A stretch of 64,000 nucleotides of DNA, taken from assembly GCA_022539475.1 (NCBI GenBank), contig VCMS01000203.1:16761-80760 (forward strand), written 5' to 3'. The translations under genes were made by a program, and so were the position numbers. The notes beneath the pieces are model-generated. The model was not told where the DNA came from. It was given only the letters and a program-made list of their open reading frames with translations, and did no database searches. Each line of letters begins with the position of its first letter. The first letter of the stretch is position 1. Origin of the DNA: Gracilaria domingensis. Its lineage: Eukaryota; Rhodophyta; Florideophyceae; Gracilariales; Gracilariaceae. This document shows, piece by piece, positions 1,035 through 63,509 of this stretch.

Positions 1035-3449
1035 TCAAAGCATCTCCACCGCTTCAGTGGTGGAGACAAATTCGTTCTGCCAATTCTCCAGTCCGTCCAA
1101 TTCAAACTCTTCCTCAACCTCGTTAACCTGATCTGATGAGATAATCTCATCATCGAGAAATTGCGAGTACATATTCCCATTCATCGCTCCCTCGGACACA
1201 TTCGCGCTCATTGCTTCGCTCAGCCCCCCAAATCGTAACTGAATGTACTCAGTCCCAGAAAGTTTCTTGACAGATCTACAGCGCGCTTCAATCAGGGAGT
1301 CGTTAAAGGCGCAAAACACTAACTTCGATACTTTCCCTTGTTGTAATCTATTTCGAGAAGATGTTCGCACCCTCCCTTGTAGACTGAAACTGCGCTCGAC
1401 CGTCGAAGAAGATGGGCTGGAGCATAAAATACGAAGTGCAAACTCCCGAAGAAGCGATTTCTTGGAGTATTCAATCCAGTAATATACTGGCGTTTGACTG
1501 TACATGAGCAAAGAATGCTTGGTGATGGGGTCCTGCAGCTGCGAACGCCATGACATCCGCACAGACACAAACTCTTTGCATATCTTGTCAACCGCACCGT
1601 TTTCTCCTCCTTCGCTCCCAACCTTTTCGCTCGCAGGAAAACTGTCTGAACGGACAAACGACAGCACTTGCTGCACCACATGGGAACGAAACAGTGCCAA
1701 GTTCTCTGCAAGGCTACGAAGATCCAACATGTATGCAACGTGATGTATAGGGGTGACCAATGCGACCTTCTTCCCTTCCCCTTGCATTCGTTCCTGGAAA
1801 ACTCTGATAATTTCATCTTTCCTTTCGCTGGTGTAGAATGGTGTGTTCGGCAACTGCCGAATCTTTTCCAACAGCTGGACCGAAGCTGGATAAACCTCTG
1901 ACAGCAATGAGGACTCGTCGTCAAAAAGTCTCAAGTACTGCCGAACGAGGCGAAAAATGTGATATATATCCAGGAGCTTGTCATAAAGAGGCTCGTTGCG
2001 AATCGTAGCCTTGAAGGTTTCCCTCTTTTCTCGGTTCCGGCCATTATATAGAGCAGAATGAAAGTCCTGACAGTCGATTAGTTCATTCAGGACCACTTTG
2101 CATCTAAGAAAAGCTGCAATCATTCTCTCCGACGACGCGAACCTCGTCTGAGCCATCTTGCAGGGAAGAATGGCAGTAGGGGGCAAGCAGACTCTGCCGT
2201 ACTGATCCAGTTCGGAAGAGGTTCGATTACGTGCAGTTCTTAAATTAAAGCGCGTCTTGAGCTCTTTGAAACGATAGTAAAGCTTGGGATGATTTCGAAG
2301 ATCCCCAATCACGGCCGACACCATCGACAGAATTTCACGAATCCACACGAGTTTTCCCATGTCTTGCATTAATAAGTTGGCCAAGTGTGTCTGGTCCTGA
2401 ATTGCGATCATGTGGTTGTGTCTTGCCAGAATATTCTCTTTGGCCTTAACGCAGGAGCTCGTGTTGTCGCTGACAACTGCGCAAATACGCTGCATGTCAC
2501 CGAATTCTAACATTGCGTCTTCGACGACCCTGGCGTAAAAAGATGCATCGCATGAAATAGATCCTGTATAAACCGACTTCAAGAAAAATGTTTTCCTAAT
2601 CGTCTCAACTCCTGTTATGGATAGTAAAACGTTCACGACCGCTTCATTATTTGCGTCAGTCCATCCATCAAAGACCAACGTACCATACGACTGCTTCAGA
2701 GACGAGCCAATAGATTGCTTAACGCGACTATGCATGGTCTCGTAATAGATGTTAACATTCCTCGAACTCATCGTATGCGGATCTGAAAGCTGTTTGCTCA
2801 ACTGATAATCCGCTAATCGGATAATTTCATAGAGCTCATTTTGTCCCTCTGTGCGGCTCAGTAGCGAGAAAGGAAGCATGTGCTTCACAAAGAAGCGAGT
2901 TACTAGCTCATTAAATCTCGACCTCCGGTCCCGAGAACAAAGTGTTTCGATACTGTTTGAGTTCTCGGGCTTACTGTCTTCCAACACCGAAGAACTGCCC
3001 TTGACGACAGAACGAGATCCAATTCCAGCAGACTTGTTCTTCCTTACTCCGTGGGTTGAGAGCGCTTTGCGCTTTTTTCTAATAACAGGCGTAATTGGGG
3101 TTCCAAACAAATCTGAGCCACCATTATTGCAGTTTTCCCGGTAGTACTTTCCAAGAACCTTGTCCCTCTTGAGGCGGTGGCGATCTTCTGGGGAGAGCTT
3201 CTTGCAACGCATTAAGTGCTGCCCCAATTTTGTGGTGTTGGGTATTTTTGCTCGTGATTGAAATCCACAGGCCTTGCAAGTGGGATACACATTGGCGGAA
3301 CCACCATCCTCGTCATCGTTATCATCAGCGCGAAAAACATAAAGTTCTTCCACCCACCATTTTTTCCGTTTCGTTTTGTGCACTGCGGAGACAGAATGTC
3401 TTTCTGTGTGCTCCGTTGCTGTATTCACGGATGATATTTGCTCCGACAT
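1035..3449 (-). CDS. hAT-superfamily transposase with BED-type zinc finger
   Basis: An 804-residue frame without internal stops. Order of domains: a BED-like zinc finger (C58, C61, H78, C82); a DUF659/RNase H-like core with the first acidic position in VFDGWTDANNEA and the second in CAVVSDNTSS; a long helical insertion; and a C-terminal hAT dimerisation region reading SSSTVERSFS, then RNRL, which supplies the Glu of the DDE set. hAT transposases move DNA by cut and paste and leave 8-bp target duplications. The Cys of the CxxH motif that usually follows the second Asp is missing; the local sequence is IQDQTHLANLL. No flanking terminal inverted repeats were found, so the gene may be an immobile copy, a domesticated one, or an element whose ends I missed. 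Family assignment is firm; activity is unknown. Confidence 0.88.
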   Translation of the reverse strand: MSEQISSVNTATEHTERHSVSAVHKTKRKKWWVEELYVFRADDNDDEDGGSANVYPTCKACGFQSRAKIPNTTKLGQHLMRCKKLSPEDRHRLKRDKVLGKYYRENCNNGGSDLFGTPITPVIRKKRKALSTHGVRKNKSAGIGSRSVVKGSSSVLEDSKPENSNSIETLCSRDRRSRFNELVTRFFVKHMLPFSLLSRTEGQNELYEIIRLADYQLSKQLSDPHTMSSRNVNIYYETMHSRVKQSIGSSLKQSYGTLVFDGWTDANNEAVVNVLLSITGVETIRKTFFLKSVYTGSISCDASFYARVVEDAMLEFGDMQRICAVVSDNTSSCVKAKENILARHNHMIAIQDQTHLANLLMQDMGKLVWIREILSMVSAVIGDLRNHPKLYYRFKELKTRFNLRTARNRTSSELDQYGRVCLPPTAILPCKMAQTRFASSERMIAAFLRCKVVLNELIDCQDFHSALYNGRNREKRETFKATIRNEPLYDKLLDIYHIFRLVRQYLRLFDDESSLLSEVYPASVQLLEKIRQLPNTPFYTSERKDEIIRVFQERMQGEGKKVALVTPIHHVAYMLDLRSLAENLALFRSHVVQQVLSFVRSDSFPASEKVGSEGGENGAVDKICKEFVSVRMSWRSQLQDPITKHSLLMYSQTPVYYWIEYSKKSLLREFALRILCSSPSSSTVERSFSLQGRVRTSSRNRLQQGKVSKLVFCAFNDSLIEARCRSVKKLSGTEYIQLRFGGLSEAMSANVSEGAMNGNMYSQFLDDEIISSDQVNEVEEEFELDGLENWQNEFVSTTEAVEML

Positions 3450-11925: not shown

Positions 11926-13863
11926 ATGGGTTCCACAGGCGATATGATATGGCGTGAACTTAGCCCGCAATTCTTCTCCAATCTCCAGCTCAAGGCCGAA
12001 GGTGCCGGAGCCTCCGTATACCGCGGTCTGCTTCCCTCTGTGAACCCCTCAGAAAAGCCATGCACTGTCGCGCTGCGAAAGCCCAGAATCACTTCAATGT
12101 CAGCCCTCACTCGCTTCGAGTCAGAGCTCCGTCTGCGCTCCAGGATATCCCACCCTAACCTACTCCCTCTTCTGGGAGCCTGCACCTCCCCTCCTAACTA
12201 CTGTACCGTGTCTCCATGGATGGATGGCGGAACCATGTTTGATGTCCTGCATGCCAAGTCGGTTAAGATGTCCTTTGAGCGCCTTATTCAGCTAACTCTG
12301 CAGTTTGCCAAGGCTATGGCACACATGCACCAACTCAATCTTGTACACCGTGATTTGAAAACCGCCAACATTCTTCTTGACGGCAAGTGGGAGAATCTTA
12401 TGGTTGCAGATCTTGACCTTGCCATCGATGTCAACGAACTTCTTTCGGCAGCCTCTCGCAACGGTGGCCGCGCACTTCACAGAGGTCCTTCTAATGGCAG
12501 ACTGTCACACATGGTTGGAACTTTGGTTTACATGGCTCCTGAGGTACTGCAAGGTAAACCGCATTCGTTTGCGGCTGATGTCTACGCTTTCGCTATCACT
12601 GTCAACGAGATGGCAGCTTGCGCTGTTCCATACGTTGACAGAAAAATGCCCGTGCCCGAGCTGCACACTGTTTTGGAGACACGTTTCAACGAGGTCAAGC
12701 TGCGTGGCGCGATAGTCAAGAACCATTTGAGACCCGTTCTTGCACACGGTGTTCCCCATGAATTCAGCAATCTTGTACAACAATGTTGGCATCCTGATCC
12801 GCAACAACGCCCTAATTTCGTTCAGATTGTTTCTGTTCTGGAGTCCTTACTTGCGAAGGGTTCAAACTATCTCTCTCAGTTTTCTGGCTCCACTTTCGAC
12901 ACCGATGAACATCTTGCCGCCACTTCTAAGAATCTGAAGATCGATGATAGTAATATTGTTTTGCAGGAAATCAGGGCAAGTGCTGCCAAGCCCCGGAAGC
13001 CCATTTGGGAATTGTGCGACCGAAAGCAACAAAACTCTGGCTATGGCCGCATGGAGATAGATGCCAAGTTGTTGGAGGTTACTGCAGCCTTGTCATCCAC
13101 CTGTGGAGAACGAGGTCCAGATCGTATGGAAGACCGAAGTATCGTGGAACCAAATCTGGGAAACCTTCCCAACACTCACTTGTTCGCCGTCTTTGACGGT
13201 CATGGTGGTCAAAATTGTTCCGATTTTGTCGCAAGAAACTTCCCGGGAGCTCTGTTCCGAGCTTGGTCTAACGAAGAGGCTACGCCAGAATCAGCTCTTG
13301 TCCACGCATTCGAAGACGTTGATTATGCATTTTTGAGGGACTCGCCTGCCGAAGAAACTAGTGGCTGTACCGGACTTGCAGCCCTTATTATTGATTCTAA
13401 TCTTTATGTCGCCAATGCTGGTGATTGCCGATGTATCCTAAGCCGAAAAGACGGTACTGTACTTGCGTTGAGCAAGGATCATGTGGCCACTGACCCTGCA
13501 GAACAAGCCAGGGTGGTTGCAAGGGGCGGCTTTGTCTCAGCAACTGGTCGGGTCATGGGATGCCTTATGGTGTCGAGATCATTGGGAGACCGAGCGTTTA
13601 AAAAGTACATTTCCGCTACACCAGATATTGTCAAGCAGCGACTGACTGCTGACGACGATTTCATTATTATGGCTAGCGACGGTCTCTGGGATGTGGTACC
13701 TGTTGACGAGGCGGCAGCACTTGTTCGATCTACGGTCCGCGTTCCCGACCTTGCTGCGAAGAGACTTGCCCTGAAAGCCGTTGAATTAGGTTCGGACGAT
13801 AACATATCCGTTATCGTTGCGTTTTTCGGCGGCAACGTTAGTTTCAGTTATTTTGGGAGCTAG
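11926..13863 (+). CDS. Protein kinase-PP2C phosphatase fusion
   Basis: 645 residues. A kinase-like domain (about 20-310) is followed by a PP2C phosphatase domain (about 385-635). Kinase: the VAIK position reads VALRK (R51 where Lys is expected, K52 next), the catalytic loop HRDLKTAN is intact (D143), DFG is replaced by DLD (162-164), and the APE motif reads MAPE (203-206). PP2C: RMEDR (E402, D403), FDGHGG (D424, G425), SDGLWD (D585) and DDNIS (D625) keep all metal ligands, so phosphatase activity is expected. Plants have a comparable kinase plus PP2C protein. The kinase part may be a weak kinase or a pseudokinase that regulates the phosphatase. A TATA box lies about 110 bp upstream. Confidence 0.92.
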   Translation: MGSTGDMIWRELSPQFFSNLQLKAEGAGASVYRGLLPSVNPSEKPCTVALRKPRITSMSALTRFESELRLRSRISHPNLLPLLGACTSPPNYCTVSPWMDGGTMFDVLHAKSVKMSFERLIQLTLQFAKAMAHMHQLNLVHRDLKTANILLDGKWENLMVADLDLAIDVNELLSAASRNGGRALHRGPSNGRLSHMVGTLVYMAPEVLQGKPHSFAADVYAFAITVNEMAACAVPYVDRKMPVPELHTVLETRFNEVKLRGAIVKNHLRPVLAHGVPHEFSNLVQQCWHPDPQQRPNFVQIVSVLESLLAKGSNYLSQFSGSTFDTDEHLAATSKNLKIDDSNIVLQEIRASAAKPRKPIWELCDRKQQNSGYGRMEIDAKLLEVTAALSSTCGERGPDRMEDRSIVEPNLGNLPNTHLFAVFDGHGGQNCSDFVARNFPGALFRAWSNEEATPESALVHAFEDVDYAFLRDSPAEETSGCTGLAALIIDSNLYVANAGDCRCILSRKDGTVLALSKDHVATDPAEQARVVARGGFVSATGRVMGCLMVSRSLGDRAFKKYISATPDIVKQRLTADDDFIIMASDGLWDVVPVDEAAALVRSTVRVPDLAAKRLALKAVELGSDDNISVIVAFFGGNVSFSYFGS

Positions 13864-14106: not shown

Positions 14107-16248
14107 TTACCTATGCCCCGATGGCCAGGCAGGAGTCATCAATCTAGCGCGTCCAGGCTGCCCTGAGCTTCCTCGATTATTGCTACCGCTAAATCCTGCT
14201 GGAAGGCTTGGGGTGTTGCCTTTCGTAGGACCAAAGCCGGGAAGGTTAACCATTCGTGAAGATCCACCTCGCCTTCCAGATACGTTTTCTTCGCCTGTGA
14301 CGCATCTGCTGCATCTCGGTTCATTGGGTTTATCTGCATAGAGCCAGAAGGTTTGAGTTAGCGGTAGTCTACATATTGTACAAGTCAAGCAGTCTTTGTG
14401 CCATGTCTTATCCATTGCTGTGATGACCGTATCCATGATCGGCTTCGAGCAACGGGCGCATCGAGAAGCGATGTGATTCGCATAGCATTGATTACAAAAT
14501 GGGATCCCGTTTCGCTCTCGAAACTGACTTGGACCGATTGACATCGGCCGTTTGCACATACCGCAGCAGAAGCATTGGGGATGGAATTCTTTTCCCATTG
14601 CTTTCGTGACTGCGCCTGCTATCGGTAGCCCACATGCAGCACATTTCGGTCCTTGGATATTGGGAGTTCCTGCAGGAACAGAAGATGATTCTTCATGCTT
14701 CACCTCAGATTTGTTCTTAATTTTGTCATCCTTCTTTCCCTCTACTGCGGGGGACACCTCACTTACAGGTCCGTTAACGGTAGATGATGGACCTGGCTCA
14801 CTGTGAGCTCGAGCGGCGGGAGCCTTCGCTTGCTTCCCCTTCTGCTTCTTCCTGTTCTTCTTCGCAGCCTTCCTGTTTGCTTTGTTCCTTGGTAGCGTTG
14901 AAGATGCAATAGTTGCAGCAGCTGCCTTCGAAGCCACCGCACCAGTCTTGCTCCCAGCGGGGCCTGATTTTCTTGCAGCAGACGACGTACCCTTTGTGTC
15001 CTGCTTGCTTTTATTCGAAACTGAGGGCTTGGTGGCCTTCTTCGGCTGAGCTGAAAGACCTCCAAGTGCTGCAGCATGATCAAACCCAGTCGGCGGGGTT
15101 CCAGATTTAGCTCCTTGTGCCTTTTTAGCGCCGCCTTTAGCCATTGCGATTTTAGCGGATATCTCAGCTCTCAACATATCGCGTGTTGCTTCTTCAGCAC
15201 AATTATAGAGTGGCGGAACTGGTACGCGTGCAAGCGCGACATTGTATGACTGTTGCACATATTCAATGGTGAATGTCTCCCAAGATCCCTTATGGTTGCG
15301 CATTTCCAGTCCCCCTCGCGGACCAGCCATAAGCCATTGAATGGAATCTAATCCTTGTCGACGAGCGCCAATATTCACCTGCCCTAGCGAACCTGAAGCG
15401 CTTAAAAAGAGTGTTGATTTCTCAGTGATCAATCTTGCACATGGAAAGTTTGTATCTGATTTACCGATCGTGAGATAGCGGTCGCAATTCACTTCCTTAA
15501 GATATAAACACAACGAAGTGGGATCCGTTCTGTCTGAGGAGCTTCTGCTGGCAACAAATATCAAGTCGTGATCACGACTGGAATTGACTTCGCTCCGCGC
15601 TCCTGTTTGAAGCACCGAGATTTCTTCTTTTTGGGTAACATCTCGATGCAGAATTCGTGCATGAACAGATCGAAGTCTGAAACGAACACCGAGCAACAAC
15701 AAGACTTGTGAAATGGCTTCCGGAACCTGAAGAAACGATGGCGCAAACGGAAGAGGTGAGCCGGTTAATCCTTTACTTATGGAGCCTGGTATGATTTCCA
15801 AGTGAAACAACTCCCACTTCGTACAACGGTTACGCGACTGCACCTTCTGATCTCGTTTGACGCCATGCAAACTGAGATATTTTCGCGGCTTTGCGACAGA
15901 AAAAAGAGAGAACAGCATACGACGAGGACTGGAAGCATCGTTTAACTGGATCTTGAGAAGTTGTGGGGGCTCAGCGAGCGTGGGAACCTCTCCAATTGTT
16001 AAAAACTTCTTCGTGCCCTCTTCCGCATGTTGCGACATTACCACCGCTTGAATTGGCTTGAGAACAGAGGTGTTGTCTCCAGACACGAAATGCAGAGCGG
16101 CTGCATTTTCACGCGAATCAGTTCGGAAAAGCGTGCCATCGTTCTGCGCGACAAAAATGTCGGCAGTTTCGGAACGAAGGCGAGCCGCAAACCCAAGACG
16201 CAAGAGCGCGTTGAACTGAAAAACGTTGGGGTGCTCAAACAGCGCCAT
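14107..16248 (-). CDS. Two-LIM-domain protein with beta-trefoil-like N-terminus
   Basis: 713 residues. About 1-335 hold repeated strand motifs of the fascin/ricin-like type (KFLTIGE, KYLSLHG, RYLTIGKSD, MRNHKG); I read these as beta-trefoil repeats, which is an inference. A linker of about 200 residues is rich in Ala, Lys, Ser and Gly. Two tandem LIM zinc fingers follow at about 534-590 (CAACGLPI ... HPQCFCCGMC ... CNQCY) and 594-650 (CARCSKPI ... HKDCLTCTIC ... CSRC). A Gly/Ser/Pro-rich tail ends the protein. LIM domains bind proteins, often in actin assemblies; a trefoil plus LIM pair would fit actin bundling, but partner and location are not shown by the sequence. Confidence 0.85.
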   Translation of the reverse strand: MALFEHPNVFQFNALLRLGFAARLRSETADIFVAQNDGTLFRTDSRENAAALHFVSGDNTSVLKPIQAVVMSQHAEEGTKKFLTIGEVPTLAEPPQLLKIQLNDASSPRRMLFSLFSVAKPRKYLSLHGVKRDQKVQSRNRCTKWELFHLEIIPGSISKGLTGSPLPFAPSFLQVPEAISQVLLLLGVRFRLRSVHARILHRDVTQKEEISVLQTGARSEVNSSRDHDLIFVASRSSSDRTDPTSLCLYLKEVNCDRYLTIGKSDTNFPCARLITEKSTLFLSASGSLGQVNIGARRQGLDSIQWLMAGPRGGLEMRNHKGSWETFTIEYVQQSYNVALARVPVPPLYNCAEEATRDMLRAEISAKIAMAKGGAKKAQGAKSGTPPTGFDHAAALGGLSAQPKKATKPSVSNKSKQDTKGTSSAARKSGPAGSKTGAVASKAAAATIASSTLPRNKANRKAAKKNRKKQKGKQAKAPAARAHSEPGPSSTVNGPVSEVSPAVEGKKDDKIKNKSEVKHEESSSVPAGTPNIQGPKCAACGLPIAGAVTKAMGKEFHPQCFCCGMCKRPMSIGPSQFRERNGIPFCNQCYANHIASRCARCSKPIMDTVITAMDKTWHKDCLTCTICRLPLTQTFWLYADKPNEPRCSRCVTGEENVSGRRGGSSRMVNLPGFGPTKGNTPSLPAGFSGSNNRGSSGQPGRARLMTPAWPSGHR

Positions 16249-26974: not shown

Positions 26975-29900
26975 TCACTCTGTGCCAGACTCAGAATCAC
27001 GACGAATTCTATCATTCCAAATCTCTTTGAGCTTTGGGACAGACAAATGCCCTGTTTCATCACTGTTATTATTACCCCTGGTATTGACATCCTTTTCCCT
27101 TTGACTGTATCTCATCACTCGACTTTGCACCGCGACGCTGCCGAGTTGCTCTGGTAGTTCCGGCTTCACCTCAGGAAGTCCACCAGAAAGTGCATCTTTT
27201 GTACCTTTGGCGTCGGCACTCTCGCTACCTCCTGTTGGAGATGGTCCACCTGCAAACAAAGAGACCCCCAGTTCATGTTTCGATGTTGAATATTTATTGG
27301 CTCTGGATCCACTTTGCTTTTCATGCTGTTCCAATGTTGACTTGTAGTTTCTTGGTTTCGATTGCAACGAAAATTCTGGAGCAGAATCGTGTAAAACCCC
27401 CGAATGCTTTGTTTCAGGAGCAGAGGGACTCGTCGCTCGTTTCGGGTGTATAGGGCGAGCATTTTGGTGTTCTGTGTGATCCATTTCCTCAGTTCTACCA
27501 ACAGTTTCATACATGACCTGAGGAGAGTCACTTGGCAGCAACTCTTGTTTTGGTGCTGAATCATGCATAAAATCCGCACTATGTGGCGCATCGTTAGCCT
27601 TGGAGTCTTCTGTGGTCGTAGCAAATCTTGCATGTGAAAACTTAGCATTCACAGCTGATGGGGTTTTCCGCAAAGTATGTTCATCTCGATTCGATCGGTT
27701 TTGTGCCGTGTTCGATTCCAGAGCGTCTTGCGAGACTATAGGGTGCGTATGGCAGAAGGGTGCGGTGCTTTCAGCCTTCTCGTTACCCTCGAATCGAATA
27801 CTTTCTAAGTCTGGGGTATGGAGATGCTTTCCTAAACAAAAATCAGTCTGTGAATCGCAATACTTCGATGGCGCTATGAAACGCGACAATCCCTCAGTAC
27901 GAACCGCAGAACCAGAGCCAACATCTTGCATCGAAATCTGCGACATTTCCGATTCGCCATGCTGATACCCGGACCAAAGCTCCCGCACTTGAGATGATGA
28001 CTCATCTTCAATACTCCCAAGAGTCGCCCTTGAGGGGCTCGAGGTGAGCGGTAAGGCCGGCGATACCATACTGACGTTTCGCTCACTCTCTCCACCCAGC
28101 AATTTGCTTTCTTCCGGAGGACTGGCTGCATCTTCTTCGTTCATGTGACTAGACCGTCGTTTTTCCAGTTCATCAAGTGAAAGAGAAGGCCCTTTTCGAT
28201 AACCCCTGAGAGTGGGAATTGACCGTGTTTCTTCGAAACCCGAACGCCTGTCATCTGTGTACCGTCGGTTACCAGCCATAAAAGCCCGCTCGAACAATTC
28301 TTTAGCATCACTTTCCGATCCAGAATCTGAGACGCTGTAGTTTTCTGAGAAGTAGTCCATTCGTGTCAAACTGTACTTGCCAGATACCGAGAAGGAACTC
28401 TCTAGCATTTCACCGCTACTTGATTCAGCTTGACGTGAACTTGCACCCTGACGACTGCTGCTTGCGGGGCCATTGGACTGTCCATCGCTAGAAAGGGTGC
28501 TTTCCTTCATTCCAGAGCCACTGAACATTCTACGTAAGGCGTTCACGACATTTGGACGCTTTGCAGTGGCAAGTGCACGCAACGCGGCAGAATCAACGAT
28601 CGTTTCTTCAACGTGCTCTGACTCATTATCGATAGGAGCAAACGCCGCGAGCAATGTGTCAGCTTTTGCTAGCTCTCCAGGAGGCGGTCGTGAGGAAGAC
28701 AGAGCGCGTCTTAATGGTGATGAGGATGCTGAACCTCGTTTGGACCCAGAACGTGAAAGACTAGCAAACATACCGCGCGAACCGCTTTGAGGAGATTGCG
28801 GCAGTGGCGATAAAGGGGGCGAAAGGTTAGTGGATGCAGCCTCAGACATGCTGCGCAGACTAGTTTGCACCTCAAGACGGTGCCATGCAGCTTCAAGATT
28901 CGCTTCCTCTCTCGCAGCCTGAAATGCCACTTCTTGCAGACTTGGTTCAACGCTTTTATCGGCACCCGAAAGCACATCGTCCACAACGCGCTGTGTTGGA
29001 ATCTTGTGTATAGAGGAGAGATCTGACTTCGACGGCGGTCGAAAAAGCTTATCCCAGGCTGAACTTACCCATTCGGGGGCGTCCGGAATCGCTTCACGAG
29101 GTAACTCAAGTGGTTCTTCTTCTTTCATCATTCTCGCACGTATGGCAGCTAGGGAACGTGTAGAGTATTCTTTAGCACGCTTTAAACGTTCGATCGCATT
29201 GGAAGATAGTTGAGAAAGTGACATAGTTGATTGCCTTTCACGCTGAATACCCTCAAAGGGGTCAGGCATGATTAGGTCTGGAGCTCGTGAGTTAATGAAA
29301 GAATCCTCGGCTTGAAGCCCAGTTCTCCAACGACGTCGACGAGCTCGCATGCGCCGCACGATGCAAAGGAAAATGAGGGTTCCGAGTAAGCCAGCTAGCA
29401 CAAGAGTACACACAGCAATTATAGAGGCGCGAGCAGCCACGGGGAGCGAACCTTTTGGGGTTGCCAGTACAACATTGTTGATGCCCGTAGGAGGAATGAA
29501 AAACTCTGAAAGTGTTGCGTTGCCCATGGTCCTGCGAATCCATGAGACGTAAGGTGCAACAGTTGTGTAGATGATAGGGGCCCTCCCATTTGTGCAAAAG
29601 GGTCTCTGAACTTCGTAAGAATCGTGCCTACCAAGCGTGGCGACGGCGACAAGAACGGCGACAGTGCCAGATTTATCTACGTCGTAAAGTGGGCTACCTG
29701 TGTCCCCAAAACACGGACCACATGTTGCAGAGGAAGCGGTACATATACGACGTGCACGATCATTATCTTGCGGTTCAGGACAAGGAGATATCGGCATGTC
29801 TGCGAATAGAAGTGGACGCTCCTTGTGTGTGAGAGGTTGCTGGTTGTTGAACGGAGGTTCACTTGTCCCATACCCCTTGAGTCTAAGGTATGTTCGCCGT

Positions 29901-30427
29901 GGAGATCTTGCAAAGGCAGAATTGTTATTTACGCGCATAACGTTCTGTGTCTTAAGATCAATGGGCTCCGGGATCGGTTCCGATGATTCCACGGGAACTG
30001 TGTCACTGGTGAGAAGGATGGGGCGTCGTAATTGTACGAGCTGCAAGTCATAGCGCCATGGAGTCGGGGTGGGCAATCTGTACATGGGGTGAGAGATCAC
30101 TCGTTCGATTTCGTACAATGCACCAGTGAGGGACGAGCCTCCGTGAAGAACGAAGTTGAAATCGGCCGAGATGGGGCATTGCGCAGCTGTGAGCACCCAC
30201 AAGGGATGAATAAGCGAGCCAACACAGACATAGTTAATTCCTTCAGCGTCACGATACGCTAGCGTCACGACGTTGTCGAGAGCAACAGCCTCTGCAGGGC
30301 GACCGCCTAAAATGCGCACGCTAGTGTTAAACAACGGAAGTTTGACCTCACATTCCTCCTGAGCTTTCGCCACGCTTAGCAGCAGTAACAGGGACAGTGA
30401 ATAGAGAAGCCATGGCTGCGACTGCAT
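26975..30427 (-). CDS. Membrane-anchored trypsin-like pseudoprotease with long cytoplasmic tail
   Basis: 1150 residues from the ATG at 30427, chosen because it opens a clear signal peptide (MQSQPWLLYSLSLLLLLSVA). The frame extends 60 codons upstream without a targeting signature. A chymotrypsin-fold domain (about 38-300) begins RILGGRPA, like an activated N-terminus. Catalytic positions are altered: LTAAQC (Q83 for His), YDLQLV (D127 kept), GDTGSP (T243 for Ser). A single membrane helix follows at about 334-357 (IIAVCTLVLAGLLGTLIFLCIV), then RRMRARRRR as a stop-transfer. The remaining 790 residues are Ser-, Glu- and Pro-rich and presumably disordered and cytoplasmic. This predicts a type I receptor-like protein with an outside binding domain that cannot cleave in the usual way. 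Confidence 0.85.
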   Translation of the reverse strand: MQSQPWLLYSLSLLLLLSVAKAQEECEVKLPLFNTSVRILGGRPAEAVALDNVVTLAYRDAEGINYVCVGSLIHPLWVLTAAQCPISADFNFVLHGGSSLTGALYEIERVISHPMYRLPTPTPWRYDLQLVQLRRPILLTSDTVPVESSEPIPEPIDLKTQNVMRVNNNSAFARSPRRTYLRLKGYGTSEPPFNNQQPLTHKERPLLFADMPISPCPEPQDNDRARRICTASSATCGPCFGDTGSPLYDVDKSGTVAVLVAVATLGRHDSYEVQRPFCTNGRAPIIYTTVAPYVSWIRRTMGNATLSEFFIPPTGINNVVLATPKGSLPVAARASIIAVCTLVLAGLLGTLIFLCIVRRMRARRRRWRTGLQAEDSFINSRAPDLIMPDPFEGIQRERQSTMSLSQLSSNAIERLKRAKEYSTRSLAAIRARMMKEEEPLELPREAIPDAPEWVSSAWDKLFRPPSKSDLSSIHKIPTQRVVDDVLSGADKSVEPSLQEVAFQAAREEANLEAAWHRLEVQTSLRSMSEAASTNLSPPLSPLPQSPQSGSRGMFASLSRSGSKRGSASSSPLRRALSSSRPPPGELAKADTLLAAFAPIDNESEHVEETIVDSAALRALATAKRPNVVNALRRMFSGSGMKESTLSSDGQSNGPASSSRQGASSRQAESSSGEMLESSFSVSGKYSLTRMDYFSENYSVSDSGSESDAKELFERAFMAGNRRYTDDRRSGFEETRSIPTLRGYRKGPSLSLDELEKRRSSHMNEEDAASPPEESKLLGGESERNVSMVSPALPLTSSPSRATLGSIEDESSSQVRELWSGYQHGESEMSQISMQDVGSGSAVRTEGLSRFIAPSKYCDSQTDFCLGKHLHTPDLESIRFEGNEKAESTAPFCHTHPIVSQDALESNTAQNRSNRDEHTLRKTPSAVNAKFSHARFATTTEDSKANDAPHSADFMHDSAPKQELLPSDSPQVMYETVGRTEEMDHTEHQNARPIHPKRATSPSAPETKHSGVLHDSAPEFSLQSKPRNYKSTLEQHEKQSGSRANKYSTSKHELGVSLFAGGPSPTGGSESADAKGTKDALSGGLPEVKPELPEQLGSVAVQSRVMRYSQREKDVNTRGNNNSDETGHLSVPKLKEIWNDRIRRDSESGTE

Positions 30428-31108
30428 TGGAATGACTTCGGGCGCGAAACCGGCGTTCACTCTGGGTCGGGGAAGGTGTGGCGCCACCGCGACCTTCCCC
30501 GGCGACACGAAGCAACGCCCTACGGCGCTTACGTGAGAGTTGATGGGCTGACGGCCCTCATGCGAGAAGGAAATATAGGAGCGGGACGCGTGTAAACCGC
30601 CATTCAAGTGCTAGCTTAGCGCTGCATCGCCAGCTCTCGCGATGATGGCGTATGAGATCAAACCCGGTTCACACTTGTGCTACTGTACTCTACTAGAGGG
30701 TAGAAGGATAGCCCATAAGATACAACGGCGCCTCACTCCTGGCCAATGCGCGAAATCCAAGCGTATGTTAAACATATGGTTGGTACAGTACAACAAACAT
30801 CTGAATTTTGTTCAAAACATTGCATACAAACATTATTTGGTAATCGTACTACTACTAGCTAGAGGGAAGTCCGAAGTTTTGGGACGTTTCCAAGTCCTCT
30901 CTCCTGTCCACTTCGGCCGCCAAAGTTTGGCGTTGAGCTCCGGGCTCGACCATTCCAGAAACGGCACAGAAGATAAATCGTTCTTTATCTCCCGGAATAG
31001 ATCTACGAGGACTCCTACCACTACTGAAAGCGTCTAGTAATCCTTCACTCTGAATGCTTGTTCCCAACCATAACATCTTTCGTTTTGGAGACTTTCGATG
31101 TTTGATAT
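30428..31108. promoter_or_regulatory. Divergent intergenic region, pseudoprotease and IPP isomerase
   Basis: About 0.7 kb between divergent genes. Frames at 30642-31037 (plus) and 30855-31235 (minus) overlap each other and show no domain. The part beside the protease gene is GC-rich. Confidence 0.4.
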
Positions 31109-38442: not shown

Positions 38443-39243
38443 TTAGGTAGATGTATCTGAGTCAGAACGGTCTTTAGCCGTTGTACTAGTACCCTCACTG
38501 CCGCTACTACTGCCACTTTCCGAGCGCAACGACTCCGCACTGCCCGATTCCGATGCAATATTTTCCACGCTGCCGTCCTCACCCAAAAGCTCCTCTTCCT
38601 CGCTTTCCTCCTCCTCCTCACTCTCTTGATTTCTGGGATCATCCGGATCATTCAAGTCCCAAAACTCGCTCTTGGGGGCTCCACAAAGCGGGCATTTAAA
38701 CGAGTCTGGGAAGAATTTGAATTCTCGTCCTCGCGCCGGGTACATTTCATAGCCGCATCCCCCGCACTTGAATACGTGAAGTTCGGCCTCTTCCTCCGAC
38801 GATGTAATAGCGGTTTTGGGAACGGTCACCTTGTTGACCGCGGAGGGTCCACTCGACCACTCTCCACTCTTCACCTTAAACATCTTGATTCCCAACGCCA
38901 CAAACCCAAAGCCGACGAAAAACAATGGAAGCACGCCAATGCCGTCCCAATGCGCTTTTGTTTTGAAGCCTAGAATTCCTGTGGACTGAGCTGAGTCCGT
39001 CTCCACGGAGACGCCCTTTTTCTCCTGCGTTGCTGACTTGCCAACGATGCCTATCACTCGCCGTGGTCTGGCCGATCTTTGCGTGTCAGATGTGGACGGA
39101 AGCGCCATTCTCGCTGGTAACGACCTGGTGCGAATGACATGGTGCGCACGTCTAAGCGGCTTTCGTTGCAAATATTGTGTTTCGGTGCTGCTGGGTGACA
39201 ACTTAGCGCCATGAAACGCCGACACGAAGGCGACTGTGCACAT
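38443..39243 (-). CDS. Membrane-anchored plastid rubredoxin
   Basis: 266 residues from the ATG at 39243; this start gives MCTVAFVSAF, with the early Phe of red algal transit peptides. The frame is open further up to 39519 within GC-rich DNA. One membrane helix lies at about 104-121 (VLPLFFVGFGFVALGI). The rubredoxin domain follows, with four iron ligands C160, C163, C184 and C187 (KCGGCGYEMYPARGRE ... FKCPLCGAPKSEF). The last 70 residues are Glu- and Ser-rich. Plastid rubredoxins assist photosystem II or I assembly. Here the helix precedes the rubredoxin domain. Confidence 0.88.
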   Translation of the reverse strand: MCTVAFVSAFHGAKLSPSSTETQYLQRKPLRRAHHVIRTRSLPARMALPSTSDTQRSARPRRVIGIVGKSATQEKKGVSVETDSAQSTGILGFKTKAHWDGIGVLPLFFVGFGFVALGIKMFKVKSGEWSSGPSAVNKVTVPKTAITSSEEEAELHVFKCGGCGYEMYPARGREFKFFPDSFKCPLCGAPKSEFWDLNDPDDPRNQESEEEEESEEEELLGEDGSVENIASESGSAESLRSESGSSSGSEGTSTTAKDRSDSDTST

Positions 39244-39905
39244 GGTTCCCGCGTAACCTGTACAATTCACAGCTGTGTGCAGCGGCAGGAGCGTTCTTGC
39301 AGGGGCGTGTGTATAGTTTGAGTACAAGCTGCGTGAGGGCCGCAGGTCGACAACACGACGGGGGAAAGAACTATTATTCGGCGCGGGAGGACGAGATGCC
39401 CTTGAAAGACTGTGTTTCGACGGACGACGACGACGCCCACGCGGAGTGCTAAAGCGTTGCGCAGATCTTTCGTGGGAGCGTTCTGGGTGCGGGCCGGAAT
39501 GGGCCACGCGCCAACGCACACATGCGTGGCCAATCCAACCTGCAAAAATAGAGCCGTAAATTACATGCCACGCGCCGCGCCGCTGTGGACGTTGCCGCCT
39601 CGAGGGCTCGCACCAAACTTCTCTTATCTAATCCGATAATCGGATCACGTGTCGGCCGCTTGGCACCGTGATCGGCGCGGAACGTGGAGCGCGGATTTGG
39701 TTGATCCCGTTTTTGCAGATCTAAGATCGTCGCCGTCGACCGTCCCATCCTAGTTTTTCATAGAACCGGACGTTTTTCTATCGAGTGGCACTTTATCTTC
39801 AAAGCGTATATCAGCGTCCCATAAACTTCCCCCTCTTCCCCTCTTCAACAGCAACCATTCGCTTTCCATATATCACTTGTGCCTGCTTTGAATCTCCTCG
39901 GGAGG
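39244..39905. promoter_or_regulatory. Divergent promoter, rubredoxin and eIF3m
   Basis: GC-rich 660 bp between divergent genes, with CCAAT at 39530-39534. A pyrimidine-rich run (39828-39848) and AT-rich CATATATC (39868-39875) lie just before the eIF3m start. Confidence 0.4.
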
Positions 39906-58568: not shown

Positions 58569-60683
58569 TTGGCTACCTGCAGTATGCCACGCCAGGCCCC
58601 GTCTTCGAAAGGAAAATCGGTCACATCGAACGCCCCTGCTCTTTCGGGTGGTGCGCGTTCAAGGAGATCGGTCGCCGAACCGGGAAGTAATCGTGAAAAC
58701 TCCGAGAACCCGGACGCACCAACTGATGGACAGGAGGTTGTAGAATTTCCTTCTCAGGCTGCACCGCAACCGGAAGAGGAAGATCCAGTCATGGAGATAC
58801 CCTCAACCGCACCGCCGGAAAAGCTTGACTCTCAGGAGTACACTAATCTGGGCGTCCGCCTTAGCATTGCTAATGCAGCCCACGTATCCCTCATCGAGTC
58901 AGTCGAGGAGCTCCGTCGACAGGTCTATAAACTCCTAGATGAGGATGTCTCGGGAGAAGTTCGTACCCTGAGACAGGAGGTGAATTCCATAATGGAGTGC
59001 TTTGGTTCCCCAAGGGTATATGTAGAGGACTCTTGCCTCGAAAGAGAGGTGACCCGAACCGCCCTGGAGCGAATCCACGTACGTTTGGATACCCTCGAAG
59101 CCACCATTATCATAGATGAGAAGACAGAAGCCGCCGAGCGGAATCGTTCGGATGCCGAAAGTTCCATTCATCGATCTAGTAAGAGGAGCCGTCGCAAGTC
59201 CATGAAGGAATCCCGTAATTATTCGGATGTGTCTGACTCCGACTCCCGAAGCAGTTCGGACAGTTCGTCATCGTCATCGTCCTCCGATTCCTCGTATGAT
59301 AGCCGCCGCTGGCGTCCCCGTTCGTCAAAATCACGGTCTAAGGCTACCTTTACCTCTCAGGGGGCAATCCGCACTCGGAAGCAAGGCAAGAAGCACCATG
59401 GCTTGAAGGAGTTGAAGCCATACAATCAGCTTTATCGGAAGTTGCTTTCATATCGATATTATCGACTTCAGGATACTTCCGAAGTTCGGACCTCAAGAGG
59501 AACTGGAAAGGTTAGGGATTTTATCCGAAGACGCGGCATTACTCTAAACAAGAAAGAGTTTACTGGAGAAGACCCCATTCTGGTTCAGGACTTCCTTGCA
59601 ATGTTCGTGCAAGAAGCCGATATACTCGGAATGAGTGAGGGACAGGCGTATGTAGCCCTCCTGTATTACCTCAAAGGTCTGGCAGAAGATCAATTCAATT
59701 CCGTCTGCGGATCGTCAAGACCCTCGGAAGGAGGAGTTAATTGTTGGCCCGAAGCGATACACTACCTCTTACGGTCATTCGATACTGGTCACGCCATTCA
59801 AAAGGCTGCGTTAGCTCAGAGGGATACGAAACAACGTCCGGGAGAAACGGGAACCGCTTATTCAACGGGCCTGAGTAAGGCTCTTCGCCGCTGTGGTAAT
59901 GCTCATCCTTCTGGAGAGAGATGTTCCATGTTAGTGGATGGGTTGGATGCCCAGATACGAGCACTTATAGCCCGATATCGGGAGGATAATAGAAAGATGA
60001 CCTACCTTGAATTGGTACAATATGCTTAAACCGAAGGTGAAACGCTTCAAACTCGGCGTTTCTCTATGTCAAAGCCTCGCAAGGTACTGTTCGCTGAGAA
60101 ATCTGACTATTCATCCGCCCAATATGATGGGAACGACTCCAATTTGGATCATGATAATATCAACCTCGTGGGTAGCAACCCCGACTCAATTGGTACTTCG
60201 GAATTACCGTCCACGTCAGCGGAGACTCGGAGACTGATCCTGCATTTTATGCACATGGATAGCGAGTTCCCGCACCACCTATTCCCTATATAGGTCGTGG
60301 GATGAGATTCAGTCGCCCAGGAGAGGGAAAGCGCCCCACAGGGTCGTGTGGATAGAAGTCCGCAAGACCAATCAACCTCAGTTATCTGCTACGAGTGTTA
60401 CCACTTTGGGCATATCTTGACGCAGTGTACGCTCCCAGCACGGGAAAGGTTGAGAATCATCGCTCAGGTCGAGTCCCTCTCGCCAGAGAATCAGGCCCGT
60501 GTGCCGAGAACTTCCTATGAAGGCGCGAAGCACGCAATGGCTGTTCATTTGAGTGGAGGATCAAACGTCGGTCAAGCCGCTCGCACGGCAGCGCATAACA
60601 TGGTGGAAAAACTTGAACACGCGAACGGTCATCAGCTGATGCTTAGGATGGGAACCGCCCCCAACAGGTGGGTCCTGCTGTGA
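58569..60683 (+). pseudogene. Retrotransposon Gag, decayed copy 1
   Basis: The first frame gives 486 residues: a Ser/Pro-rich start, an SR-like run, then the capsid-like region (EFTGEDPILVQDFLAMFVQ, LLYYLKGLAEDQF, KALRRCGNAH). An in-frame TAA at 60027-60029 ends it. The same frame resumes, is stopped again at 60291 and 60303, and ends with a CCHC zinc knuckle (CYECYHFGHILTQC) at about 60384-60425. Another frame is better protein-like at about 60260-60345, suggesting two compensating frameshifts. No protease, integrase or reverse transcriptase follows. This is a mutated LTR-type element of the alga. Confidence 0.75.
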
Positions 60684-61313: not shown

Positions 61314-63509
61314 ATGAGCTCGCAGGTCCCGATCGGAGAGCAAGGCGAAGGGTTGAACGTCGTTAAAGACACGGCTAAATTCGCTATGGCCGCCCCTCGC
61401 GCCACTTTGGACAGTGTTTCGGTTGGCCACCGCAGCACACGAAGTAACGCGACGGCCTACGTTACCGCTTCAGATGAACCCGAACGGATCCTTCGTGGAA
61501 ACCTGTCTAAGGGTAACCAGAACGGTCGAAAGAGGAAAAACAAGTCCTCCGCTTCCGTTACGGAGGCCCAGAAGCAGCCGCAGGACGCTACCGGCCCCGC
61601 AGCTTTGCTTCCCTCCGAATGGAAGGCTCATCACCAGTTATGGTCGGAAATTGCTGCGTACGCACTGGAAGAACTCTGAACGAAAATTAAAGTCCATGTC
61701 CTCATGGCTGTGGAACTCTACTTTCGGAAGGGGATTCTTGAACTGTTAAAAAACGATCTCCCACCGCTCGTACGTGATATTGTCCAGAAAGTCTTCAACA
61801 CCGAACGGACTGATACGGACGTCCAAGAAATCTGAGCAGTACATTGGCCGCTTTGGTAGCCAAGCTACCACCCCAACCCCCAAAATTTGCACCTGGCCGT
61901 GCGGACGAAGGCACCGATAACGATTAGCGAGATACCCAACCGGAATTGAAGAAGAGTTCAACGAAGGATCCGACCGGGGTATATCTCCCACCAGTTGTAC
62001 GACAGAAAGACCCGGACAAAAGCTCGAATGATTCCTCAGACGAGAAGAGAGATCGCCGCCGTAGAGGCGGTAGACCGAGCGGAAACTTCGATTCAGAACA
62101 TTCACCACACCGAAGAAACCGACGTCGGCACCGCAGAGGGCGACGACACACCGACACGAACTTCTAGCCCTCCCACTCATCGTCAGAGGACGAGCACACC
62201 GGTACGGATGTTGATAGGGACTCCCAAAGTCCCCGGAGGAGGGGCAAGTCCGGACGGTATCGTTCCCGTCCTGGCGGGCTCGCGATGAAGCGCATATGAC
62301 CTTTGAACGAGAAGTTCGCGAAAGTGGTGGACTGACGTACGTGCAGGCTATATCGCCGTAGCCAGAAGTACGATTCAAACGTGGCGCGAAACATTTCGCT
62401 CTACCAAAAAAAAATTGAACGTGCAGATGGACGGACATTCTTTTTCAAGAACGGATCCTATTTCCGGTCTCAACTTCCTGCAGTGGTTCAAAACCCCTTG
62501 CAACCACAACGGACTTACAGAGGGAGCAGCCTTCCGGTGCTTCCAGTTTTACCTGACCGGACCCGCGCACACTTTGGTTCAATCTCGTCTAACTGGAGAA
62601 TTGGGCGCGGTAGACGCCCCAAGGGAAGAGGCGCTCCAAACGTACGAAGAGTTAGTTAACTTTCTTTTGAAAAAGTACGCAACGGACGAAGTGATCGCCG
62701 ACGCCTGTTCGGAGGTTACACTTTACCGACAATCTTCGGGAATGTCCGAAACGGAGTTCGCCCAGAAACTCTGGACGAAGGCTCTGAGATGTGGTAACGT
62801 TCTCACGGACCGGAACCTGAAAGGCATCTTTGTCGAAGGACTTCTTCCCGCTATACGGTCAAAGGTGAGAAATCACCTTGCTTCCCATCCAAACATTGGT
62901 ACGACGCACCCGCTCGATACGCGGAATCATACGGTGACATGCACCTTGCCTCGAGGCGCCAATCCGTACGGGTCGACACTCAGAGCCATTTCGCTCGCCC
63001 ACCGGCAGCACGATTCACTCGGAAGGTGCACAGTGTGGAAACTCCGTTCGAATCGGTTTACTCTCTATTGGATGAAGAAGGCGACCAGGCTTTGATCATG
63101 TCGCGAGGTTCGTCTGTGCCGTCTCCGCCCATCACTCGTTCAGTTTCAACACCGGCACAGTCTGTACGGTCCAAGTGCTCCGAGTCCTGGAGTCCAGAAC
63201 GTTCAGGGACAAGTGGCGAGGGACCAAACCTGCGGCATCTGTCTTTCTAAAGAGCCCAACTGTTGCCAGTTATTGCCTCCGGATCTCAAGAAAAAGCTGT
63301 TGGCCATACGGAAAGCAAATTACAAACGTAGTCGCGAAGAGGGCTTTTACAGTGGTTCTCAAGCCGCTCGGAGAATTAGCTCCCAAAGCAAGGACATTGG
63401 GTACCGCCAGACTGGGCAGGCCCACCCGCAAAATCCCTCGCGGTGCCAACAGACCATGTTAGTCGAAGAGCTCGCACCGGTACAGGGAAACGAACCGGAG
63501 GGTGCGTAG
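61314..63509 (+). pseudogene. Retrotransposon Gag, decayed copy 2
   Basis: Three segments lie in one frame: 61314-61679, 62415-63095 and 63213-63509, with good protein-like sequence continuing past the TGA at 61677 (VELYFRKGILELLKND). A neighbouring frame carries the reading through about 62940-63210. The capsid-like part (FLQWFKTPCNHNGLTEGAAF, KALRCGNVL, VEGLLPAIRSKV) resembles the first copy in layout but not closely in DNA. A Cys motif (CGICLSKEPNCC) sits where the zinc knuckle would be. The element is broken by stops and frameshifts; its pol, if any, lies beyond the window. Confidence 0.65.

What the first reader, a model, noticed from the sequence alone, without database searches (positions are those of the whole stretch)
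26975..30427. Transmembrane trypsin-like protein with Gln and Thr in place of catalytic His and Ser
The chymotrypsin-fold ectodomain keeps the activation-like RILGG, the disulphide-type cysteines and the Asp, but LTAAHC reads LTAAQC and GDSGGP reads GDTGSP. It is joined to a signal peptide, one membrane helix and a 790-residue Ser/Glu-rich tail. A large cytoplasmic tail on a dead protease fold suggests a receptor or scaffold. I know of no described family with this layout in algae.
Basis: partly seen in the sequence, partly recalled or inferred. Interest (0 to 1): 0.75.

Follow-up and report, generated by a model that had tools for sequence, protein, structure and literature searches.

The report
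Membrane-anchored dead trypsin with long tail
One gene appears to encode a cell-surface protein whose outer part is a trypsin that has lost its cutting residues and whose inner part is a very long flexible tail, so it probably binds and signals or scaffolds rather than cuts.

Summary
One uninterrupted 1150-codon frame (26975-30427, minus strand) encodes a leader, an S1 (trypsin) domain, one membrane helix with a basic flank, and a 793-residue tail. The S1 assignment is firm: Pfam Trypsin E=1e-15, and an AlphaFold model that matches solved S1 proteases at target TM about 0.8. Catalytic His57 is Gln83 and Ser195 is Thr243. Ser214, Gly197, Gly226 and Asp189 are also changed, while Asp102, Gly193, Asp194, Ile16 and the framework cysteines remain. 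Of 105 aligned bacterial and IMG/VR homologues, 105 keep His57 and 104 keep Ser195. It is very probably a pseudoprotease. The tail has no Pfam match and no credible PDB match, and its kinase-type motifs are no denser than in shuffles, so 'receptor or scaffold' is an inference, not a result. No orthologue could be tested: no genome is held for the window and IMG/VR, phages and plasmids gave no close relative. Red-algal origin was not verified. Dead S1 proteins are well known; the type I membrane layout with a huge tail is the unusual part.

The parts
30362..30427 (-). Signal peptide, residues 1-22 (cleavage after AKA, by the usual -3/-1 rule, recalled)
   Evidence: Sequence MQSQPWLLYSLSLLLLLSVAKA, judged by eye; no signal-peptide predictor was available and its 19-residue hydropathy stays under 1.6.
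30314..30361 (-). Propeptide-like stretch, residues 23-38, ending in Arg38; contains Cys26 and sequon Asn34
   Evidence: Arg38-Ile39 aligns with the zymogen activation site Arg15-Ile16.
29528..30313 (-). S1 (chymotrypsin-fold) domain, residues 39-300
   Evidence: Pfam PF00089 residues 39-297, profile 1-220 of 220, E=1e-15; AlphaFold model pTM 0.73 and Foldseek PDB matches E down to 1e-15 with target TM about 0.79.
30179..30181 (-). Gln83 (CAA) in place of catalytic His57
   Evidence: His in 105 of 105 homologue rows.
30047..30049 (-). Asp127, equivalent of catalytic Asp102, retained
   Evidence: Asp in 105 of 105 homologue rows.
29699..29701 (-). Thr243 (ACA) in place of catalytic Ser195
   Evidence: Ser in 104 of 105 homologue rows.
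29357..29422 (-). Membrane helix, core about residues 336-357
   Evidence: The only run above KD 1.6 in the protein; continuous helix in both models, block pLDDT 84-94 and 91-96 over residues 335-364.
29324..29356 (-). Basic stop-transfer RRMRARRRRWR, residues 358-368
   Evidence: Sequence; sets the tail on the cytosolic side by the positive-inside rule (recalled).
26978..29323 (-). Ser/Glu-rich tail, residues 369-1150, probably disordered with a few helices
   Evidence: No Pfam match at E<=0.1; one PDB match at E=0.41 to a designed-looking metal/porphyrin protein; single-sequence AlphaFold pLDDT under 50 for 660 of the 816 residues 335-1150.
26990..27040 (-). C-terminal helix, residues 1130-1146
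   Evidence: Predicted helix; the last three blocks have pLDDT 62, 75 and 58, the highest beyond the stretch next to the membrane.

Best explanation
It is a single-pass (type I) membrane pseudoprotease. The S1 domain sits outside the cell or in a lumen, keeps the trypsin fold and the disulphide framework, and has lost catalysis. It most likely uses the altered cleft and the enlarged surface loops to bind a partner: an extracellular protease, inhibitor, peptide or wall component. The long, Ser-rich, flexible tail acts as a cytosolic docking platform regulated by phosphorylation, so that the protein works as a receptor or scaffold. Because Arg38-Ile39 and Asp242 (Asp194) are kept, cleavage at Arg38 by an outside protease could still switch the ectodomain's shape, as with hepatocyte growth factor. 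Shown by computation: the S1 homology, the loss of catalytic residues, the single frame through ectodomain, membrane helix and tail. Inferred: membrane orientation, tail disorder, loss of activity. Hypothesis only: ligand binding, cleavage switch, signalling.
For: S1 homology over the full Pfam profile; best solved relatives by sequence are granzyme M and elastase. The fold model matches solved S1 proteases, 862 PDB matches at E<=0.001, the best 50 seen. Of 32 columns that are at least 90% conserved in homologues, 22 are kept; kept ones include Cys42, Cys58, Cys191, Cys220, Asp102, Gly193, Asp194 and Ile16, and lost ones include His57, Ser195, Gly197, Ser214, Gly226 and Asp189. The intact 1150-codon frame argues for retained function. 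Cysteines concentrate in the ectodomain, 8 of 312 against 3 of 792. One membrane helix with a strongly basic inner flank. Precedent for dead S1 domains as ligands, cofactors and scaffolds: PMC13194640 passages, PMC5718610 passages.
Against: No orthologue, expression or binding data. The tail has no known domain, and of 13 motifs counted only PxxP exceeds shuffles (7 against 3.2; 38 of 1000 shuffles reach it). The excess of changes at active-site columns over other conserved columns is suggestive only (3 of 8 kept against 19 of 24, Fisher p=0.07, columns chosen by me). The window domain also keeps fewer of the other conserved columns than any of the 105 homologues, so general divergence contributes. 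The ectodomain's codon score (0.079) is below that of all 14 neighbours (0.111-0.262, which were in the training set). The model's alignment is made of relatives that nearly all keep the triad, which steers it to their fold.
Confidence: 0.5

Rival explanations
1. Anchored decoy or cofactor: the dead S1 domain binds a protease, inhibitor or hydrolase at the cell surface, and the tail serves only trafficking or anchoring, with no signalling.
For: Oomycete glucanase inhibitor proteins are catalytically inactive S1 proteins that act in the apoplast (PMC3091767 passages); protein Z and insect homologues act as cofactors (PMC5718610 and PMC13194640 passages). No signalling domain in the tail.
Against: A 793-residue tail is large for anchoring alone. 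Among 127 homologous ORFs scanned, 13 have a hydrophobic 19-mer after the domain and the longest stretch behind it is 195 residues (some ORFs may be cut by contig ends, and several of the 19-mers need not span a membrane).
Confidence: 0.27
2. A degenerating gene: an S1 protease that recently lost function in this lineage and is drifting.
For: The domain is more divergent than any of the 105 homologues at conserved columns outside the active site, and the ectodomain's codon score is below that of all 14 neighbours.
Against: No frameshift or stop in 1150 codons; the framework cysteines, activation site and most core glycines are kept; the four tail segments have codon scores (0.139-0.22) inside the neighbours' range.
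Confidence: 0.12
3. Two products: the secreted ectodomain and the tail belong to separate or alternatively spliced transcripts.
For: No RNA data; the codon signal in this genome is too weak to prove each part on its own: in 60-codon steps the true frame beats the other five in 17 of 28 windows.
Against: One continuous frame runs through ectodomain, membrane helix and tail. The 14 neighbouring ORFs of the training set are single ORFs; 13 of them were scanned against Pfam and several hold near-complete domains, e.g. PP2C 5-255 of 255 and FA_desaturase 2-251 of 253, so introns seem rare.
Confidence: 0.07
4. Still an enzyme, with Thr243 as nucleophile and another base in place of His57.
For: Gly241, Asp242 and Gly244 of the oxyanion loop are kept, and Thr can be a nucleophile in other folds (recalled).
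Against: Gln is not a general base; Ser214, Gly197, Gly226 and Asp189 are changed too, so triad and pocket are both lost.
Confidence: 0.04

Closest known systems
Serine protease homologues (S1 pseudoproteases) of animals: Spheroide, Masquerade and protein Z (PMC5718610 passages); haptoglobin and scabies mite inactivated protease paralogues (PMC13194640 passages)
   Same: S1 fold with one or more triad residues replaced or a disabled active site; binding roles without cutting.
   Different: Those named are secreted, as far as I recall; this one carries a membrane helix and a 793-residue tail.
[quoted passage not shown]
   Same: Dead S1 domain with a zymogen-type cleavage site; here Arg38-Ile39 and Asp242 are kept.
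   Different: They are soluble ligands with further domains (recalled); here the S1 domain is itself attached to the membrane. The pseudo-active site as binding surface is untested here.
Glucanase inhibitor proteins of Phytophthora (PMC3091767 passages)
   Same: Inactive S1 proteins in a non-animal eukaryote.
   Different: Apoplastic effectors without membrane anchor (anchor point recalled); no evidence for a glucanase target here.
Type II transmembrane serine proteases such as TMPRSS2 (among the solved relatives)
   Same: Membrane-attached S1 domain.
   Different: Opposite topology and active enzymes (recalled); here the membrane helix follows the S1 domain.
S1 proteins of algae: trypsin-like proteases of Pyropia yezoensis induced by ACC (PMC12394230 passages) and a Chlamydomonas V8-type protease with a Kazal domain (PMC8643629 passages)
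   Same: S1-like genes in algae.
   Different: For Pyropia only annotations were seen, not triads or topology; the Chlamydomonas protein has a different layout.

Membership tests
Peptidase family S1 (Pfam PF00089) by descent | Full-length profile match above the curated cut-off | tested here: met
   58.6 bits against 20.6, profile 1-220 of 220.
Peptidase family S1 (Pfam PF00089) by descent | Chymotrypsin double beta-barrel fold | tested here: met
   AlphaFold pTM 0.73, mean pLDDT 73.5; target TM about 0.8 to solved S1 proteases. The alignment of triad-bearing relatives steers the model.
Active S1 serine proteases | Catalytic His57, Asp102, Ser195 | tested here: not met
   Gln83, Asp127, Thr243.
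Active S1 serine proteases | S1 pocket residues (Ser214, Gly216, Gly226; Asp189 for trypsin specificity) | tested here: not met
   Thr264, Gly266, Ile285, Gly237; only Gly216 is kept. The Asp189 reading follows alignment A2 and counting back from Cys191; the HMM alignment sets Gly237 in a different register.
Active S1 serine proteases | Zymogen switch: Arg15-Ile16 and Asp194 | tested here: met
   Arg38-Ile39 and Asp242.
Serine pseudoproteases (serine protease homologues) | S1 fold with at least one triad residue missing | tested here: met
   definition as in PMC5718610.
Serine pseudoproteases (serine protease homologues) | No peptidase activity | not testable with these tools
   Needs an assay.
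Type I membrane protein | One membrane helix after the ectodomain with a basic inner flank | tested here: met
   Hydropathy and sequence, helix in both models.
Type I membrane protein | Cleaved N-terminal signal peptide | tested here: inconclusive
   Judged by eye from the sequence; no predictor was available.
Type II transmembrane serine proteases | N-terminal signal anchor with the protease domain at the C terminus | tested here: not met
   The membrane helix lies after the S1 domain.
Glucanase inhibitor proteins | Secreted, inhibits endoglucanase | not tested
   The membrane helix argues against it; binding needs an assay.
Cell-surface receptors | Ligand and downstream signal | not testable with these tools
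   No signalling domain found in the tail.

The most novel reading that the evidence does not exclude
A class of cell-surface receptors in algae in which an inactivated trypsin serves as a protease sensor: an outside protease cuts the preserved Arg38-Ile39 site, the new Ile39 end docks on Asp242 as in zymogen activation, and the shape change is passed through the membrane helix to a phosphorylated cytosolic tail.
Probability: 0.12. Interest if true: 0.85.

Novelty: new variant of a known kind. Interest (0 to 1): 0.45.

Why it matters
Dead S1 proteases are known as soluble ligands, cofactors, decoys and scaffolds. One built into a type I membrane protein with a tail more than twice as long as its ectodomain would be a way to turn a protease fold into a receptor. 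Algae have few recognised cell-surface receptors (recalled), and the preserved activation site gives a direct test: does cleavage at Arg38 trigger a response?

Tried and rejected
Own-genome search for paralogues: no genome is held. Close relatives of the ectodomain in IMG/VR: no pattern match. Whole protein in phage records: no match. Ectodomain in plasmids: 3 bacterial records at 27-33% identity, one annotated serine protease, one without annotation, one (28% of the query, E 5e-3) annotated as a non-specific endonuclease. Tail in IMG/VR: 6 pattern matches, none confirmed. Tail against PDB: one match at E=0.41, taken as chance. NCBIfam and PHROGs: no match. Model against viral structures: 239 matches at E<=0.001, the best named ones being trypsin-like proteins of insect nudiviruses (the virus group is recalled for one of them); this only repeats the fold.

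Codon scores as proof of one gene: the signal is weak. The true frame scores highest of six in the ectodomain and in tail segments 370-560, 750-950 and 950-1150, but not in residues 560-750, the membrane stretch or the signal peptide, and in 60-codon steps it leads in 17 of 28. I therefore rest the single-gene claim on the open frame.

Phosphosite reading of the tail: of 13 motifs only PxxP, which is no phosphosite, exceeds shuffles. Internal DNA repeats in the gene: no direct repeat of 18 bases or more. A second S1 copy in the window: none. A bacterial-type promoter scan inside the gene found nothing and is uninformative for a eukaryote. Single-sequence folding of residues 335-1150: low confidence fits disorder but also any orphan sequence, so it is weak evidence.
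Full report
OBSERVATION. The minus-strand frame 26975-30427 opens at ATG 30427 and runs 1150 codons. The mechanical ORF extends upstream to a TTG at 30607, but the leader starts at the ATG. With the window's base composition the chance of such an open stretch is about 5e-26. By eye there is a leader of 22 residues; by hydropathy there is one membrane helix, followed by RRMRARRRRWR and 782 further residues.

WHAT THE ECTODOMAIN IS. Pfam Trypsin matches residues 39-297 over the whole profile at E=1e-15 and is the only Pfam family at E<=1 in the protein. By sequence 192 distinct PDB chains match at E<=0.1; the 60 shown are S1-family chains, the best being granzyme M at 4.6e-11. A profile made of the homologues without the window row finds it as the only hit among 1318 window ORF translations of 30 residues or more, at E 4.1e-26. 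An AlphaFold model of residues 23-365 on 106 aligned sequences has pTM 0.73 and mean pLDDT 73.5, with 201 of 343 residues at 70 or more. Foldseek finds 862 PDB matches at E<=0.001; the 50 listed are S1 proteases, target TM 0.72-0.81 except for two full-length kallikrein entries at 0.33. The alignment holds relatives that nearly all keep the triad, so the model leans to their fold.

WHAT IS LOST AND WHAT IS KEPT. I fetched 79 loci from bacterial genomes and 38 from IMG/VR with an alignment of the window domain and three typed enzymes. The scan pattern allowed Ser or Thr at 195 and Gly or Ser at 197, so it did not exclude the window's own variants, but it did exclude other changes there in the matched stretch; His57 was not in the pattern. 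Of 136 aligned domain rows (window included), 125 read His-Asp-Ser, 8 are pieces of domains split in the alignment, and 3 differ: the window (Gln-Asp-Thr), one with Gly at 195 and one Arg-Asp-Phe. In the alignment of 105 homologues, His57 is kept in 105, Ser195 in 104, Gly197 in 104, Ser214 in 105, Gly226 in 96 and Asp189 in 96; the window has Gln, Thr, Ser, Thr, Ile and Gly. The register at Asp189 differs in the HMM alignment. The window keeps Asp102, Gly193, Asp194, Gly196, Pro198, Ile16, Cys42, Cys58, Cys191, Cys220 and Tyr228. In all 22 of 32 strongly conserved columns are kept. Active-site columns fare worse than others (3 of 8 against 19 of 24) but p=0.07 on columns that I chose. Outside the active site the window keeps fewer conserved columns than any of the 105 homologues, so it is a divergent S1 domain as well as a dead one. 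The loops at about residues 143-180 and 267-277 are longer than in the three typed enzymes.

TOPOLOGY AND TAIL. Eight of 312 ectodomain residues are Cys against 3 of 792 in the tail (p=0.003). Together with the basic flank this suggests a cytosolic tail. The tail has no Pfam match at E<=0.1 and no credible PDB match. Single-sequence AlphaFold gives pLDDT under 50 for 660 of the 816 residues 335-1150, with the membrane helix and a C-terminal helix (about 1130-1146) standing out. Kinase-type motif counts do not exceed shuffles: SP/TP 12 against 10.6, RxxS/T 13 against 13.9, CK2-type 26 against 23.4; PxxP, 7 against 3.2, is one of 13 motifs. Ser richness therefore allows phosphorylation but does not show it.

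RELATIVES AND ORIGIN. No close relative was found in IMG/VR, phages or plasmids. Identity to the 105 homologues is at most 28%; short segments reach 36%. No eukaryotic genome collection is available and no genome is held for this window, so paralogues, orthologues and dN/dS are untested. Gene content suggests a photosynthetic eukaryote: DXP reductoisomerase, ABC1 kinase, a Cyt-b5 desaturase, eIF3m and Dor1 family proteins, a LETM1-type domain.

MECHANISM. The best-supported reading is a membrane-anchored pseudoprotease that binds through its ectodomain. In the passages I saw, dead S1 domains act as receptor ligands, cofactors or decoys, and scaffolds (PMC13194640; PMC5718610). In PRSS23 the Ile16-Asp194 switch is lost while the triad stays; here it is the reverse, which makes a cleavage switch a testable idea. 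Decoy or cofactor use is the main rival; the two differ in whether the tail signals.

NOVELTY. S1 pseudoproteases are a known kind; oomycete glucanase inhibitor proteins show them outside animals (PMC3091767 passages). The type I layout with a 793-residue tail did not appear in the listings of ten paper searches, which cover open-licence papers only. Passages were seen of five papers (PMC13194640, PMC5718610, PMC3091767, PMC12394230, PMC8643629); none was read whole. Among 127 bacterial and IMG/VR ORFs with the domain, 13 have a later hydrophobic 19-mer and at most 195 residues behind it. I file it as a new variant of a known kind, resting on a single sequence.

Noticed in passing
window 11926-13863 (+): One 645-aa ORF joins a protein kinase domain (about residues 25-305) to a PP2C phosphatase domain (391-627), opposing activities in one protein.
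   Followed up: partly
window 14107-16248 (-): A 713-aa protein with two C-terminal LIM domains; the N-terminal half looks fascin-like to the eye, untested.
   Followed up: partly
window 1035-3449 (-): An open 804-aa hAT-type transposase frame, DUF659 plus the hAT dimerisation domain.
   Followed up: partly
window 58569-60029 (+) and 62415-63095 (+): The second ORF has a borderline Retrotrans_gag match, 23.8 bits against a cut-off of 24.1; the first looks gag-like by eye with no family above its cut-off.
   Followed up: partly
window 38443-39519 (-): A protein with a sub-threshold rubredoxin match (17.6 against 23 bits) and, by eye, a hydrophobic stretch and an acidic Ser-rich C terminus; perhaps a plastid rubredoxin.
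   Followed up: partly
L048 3638-6880: A bacterial locus with three S1 ORFs in a row, one of which reads Gly at the Ser195 position, a possible bacterial S1 pseudoprotease beside its paralogues.
   Followed up: no
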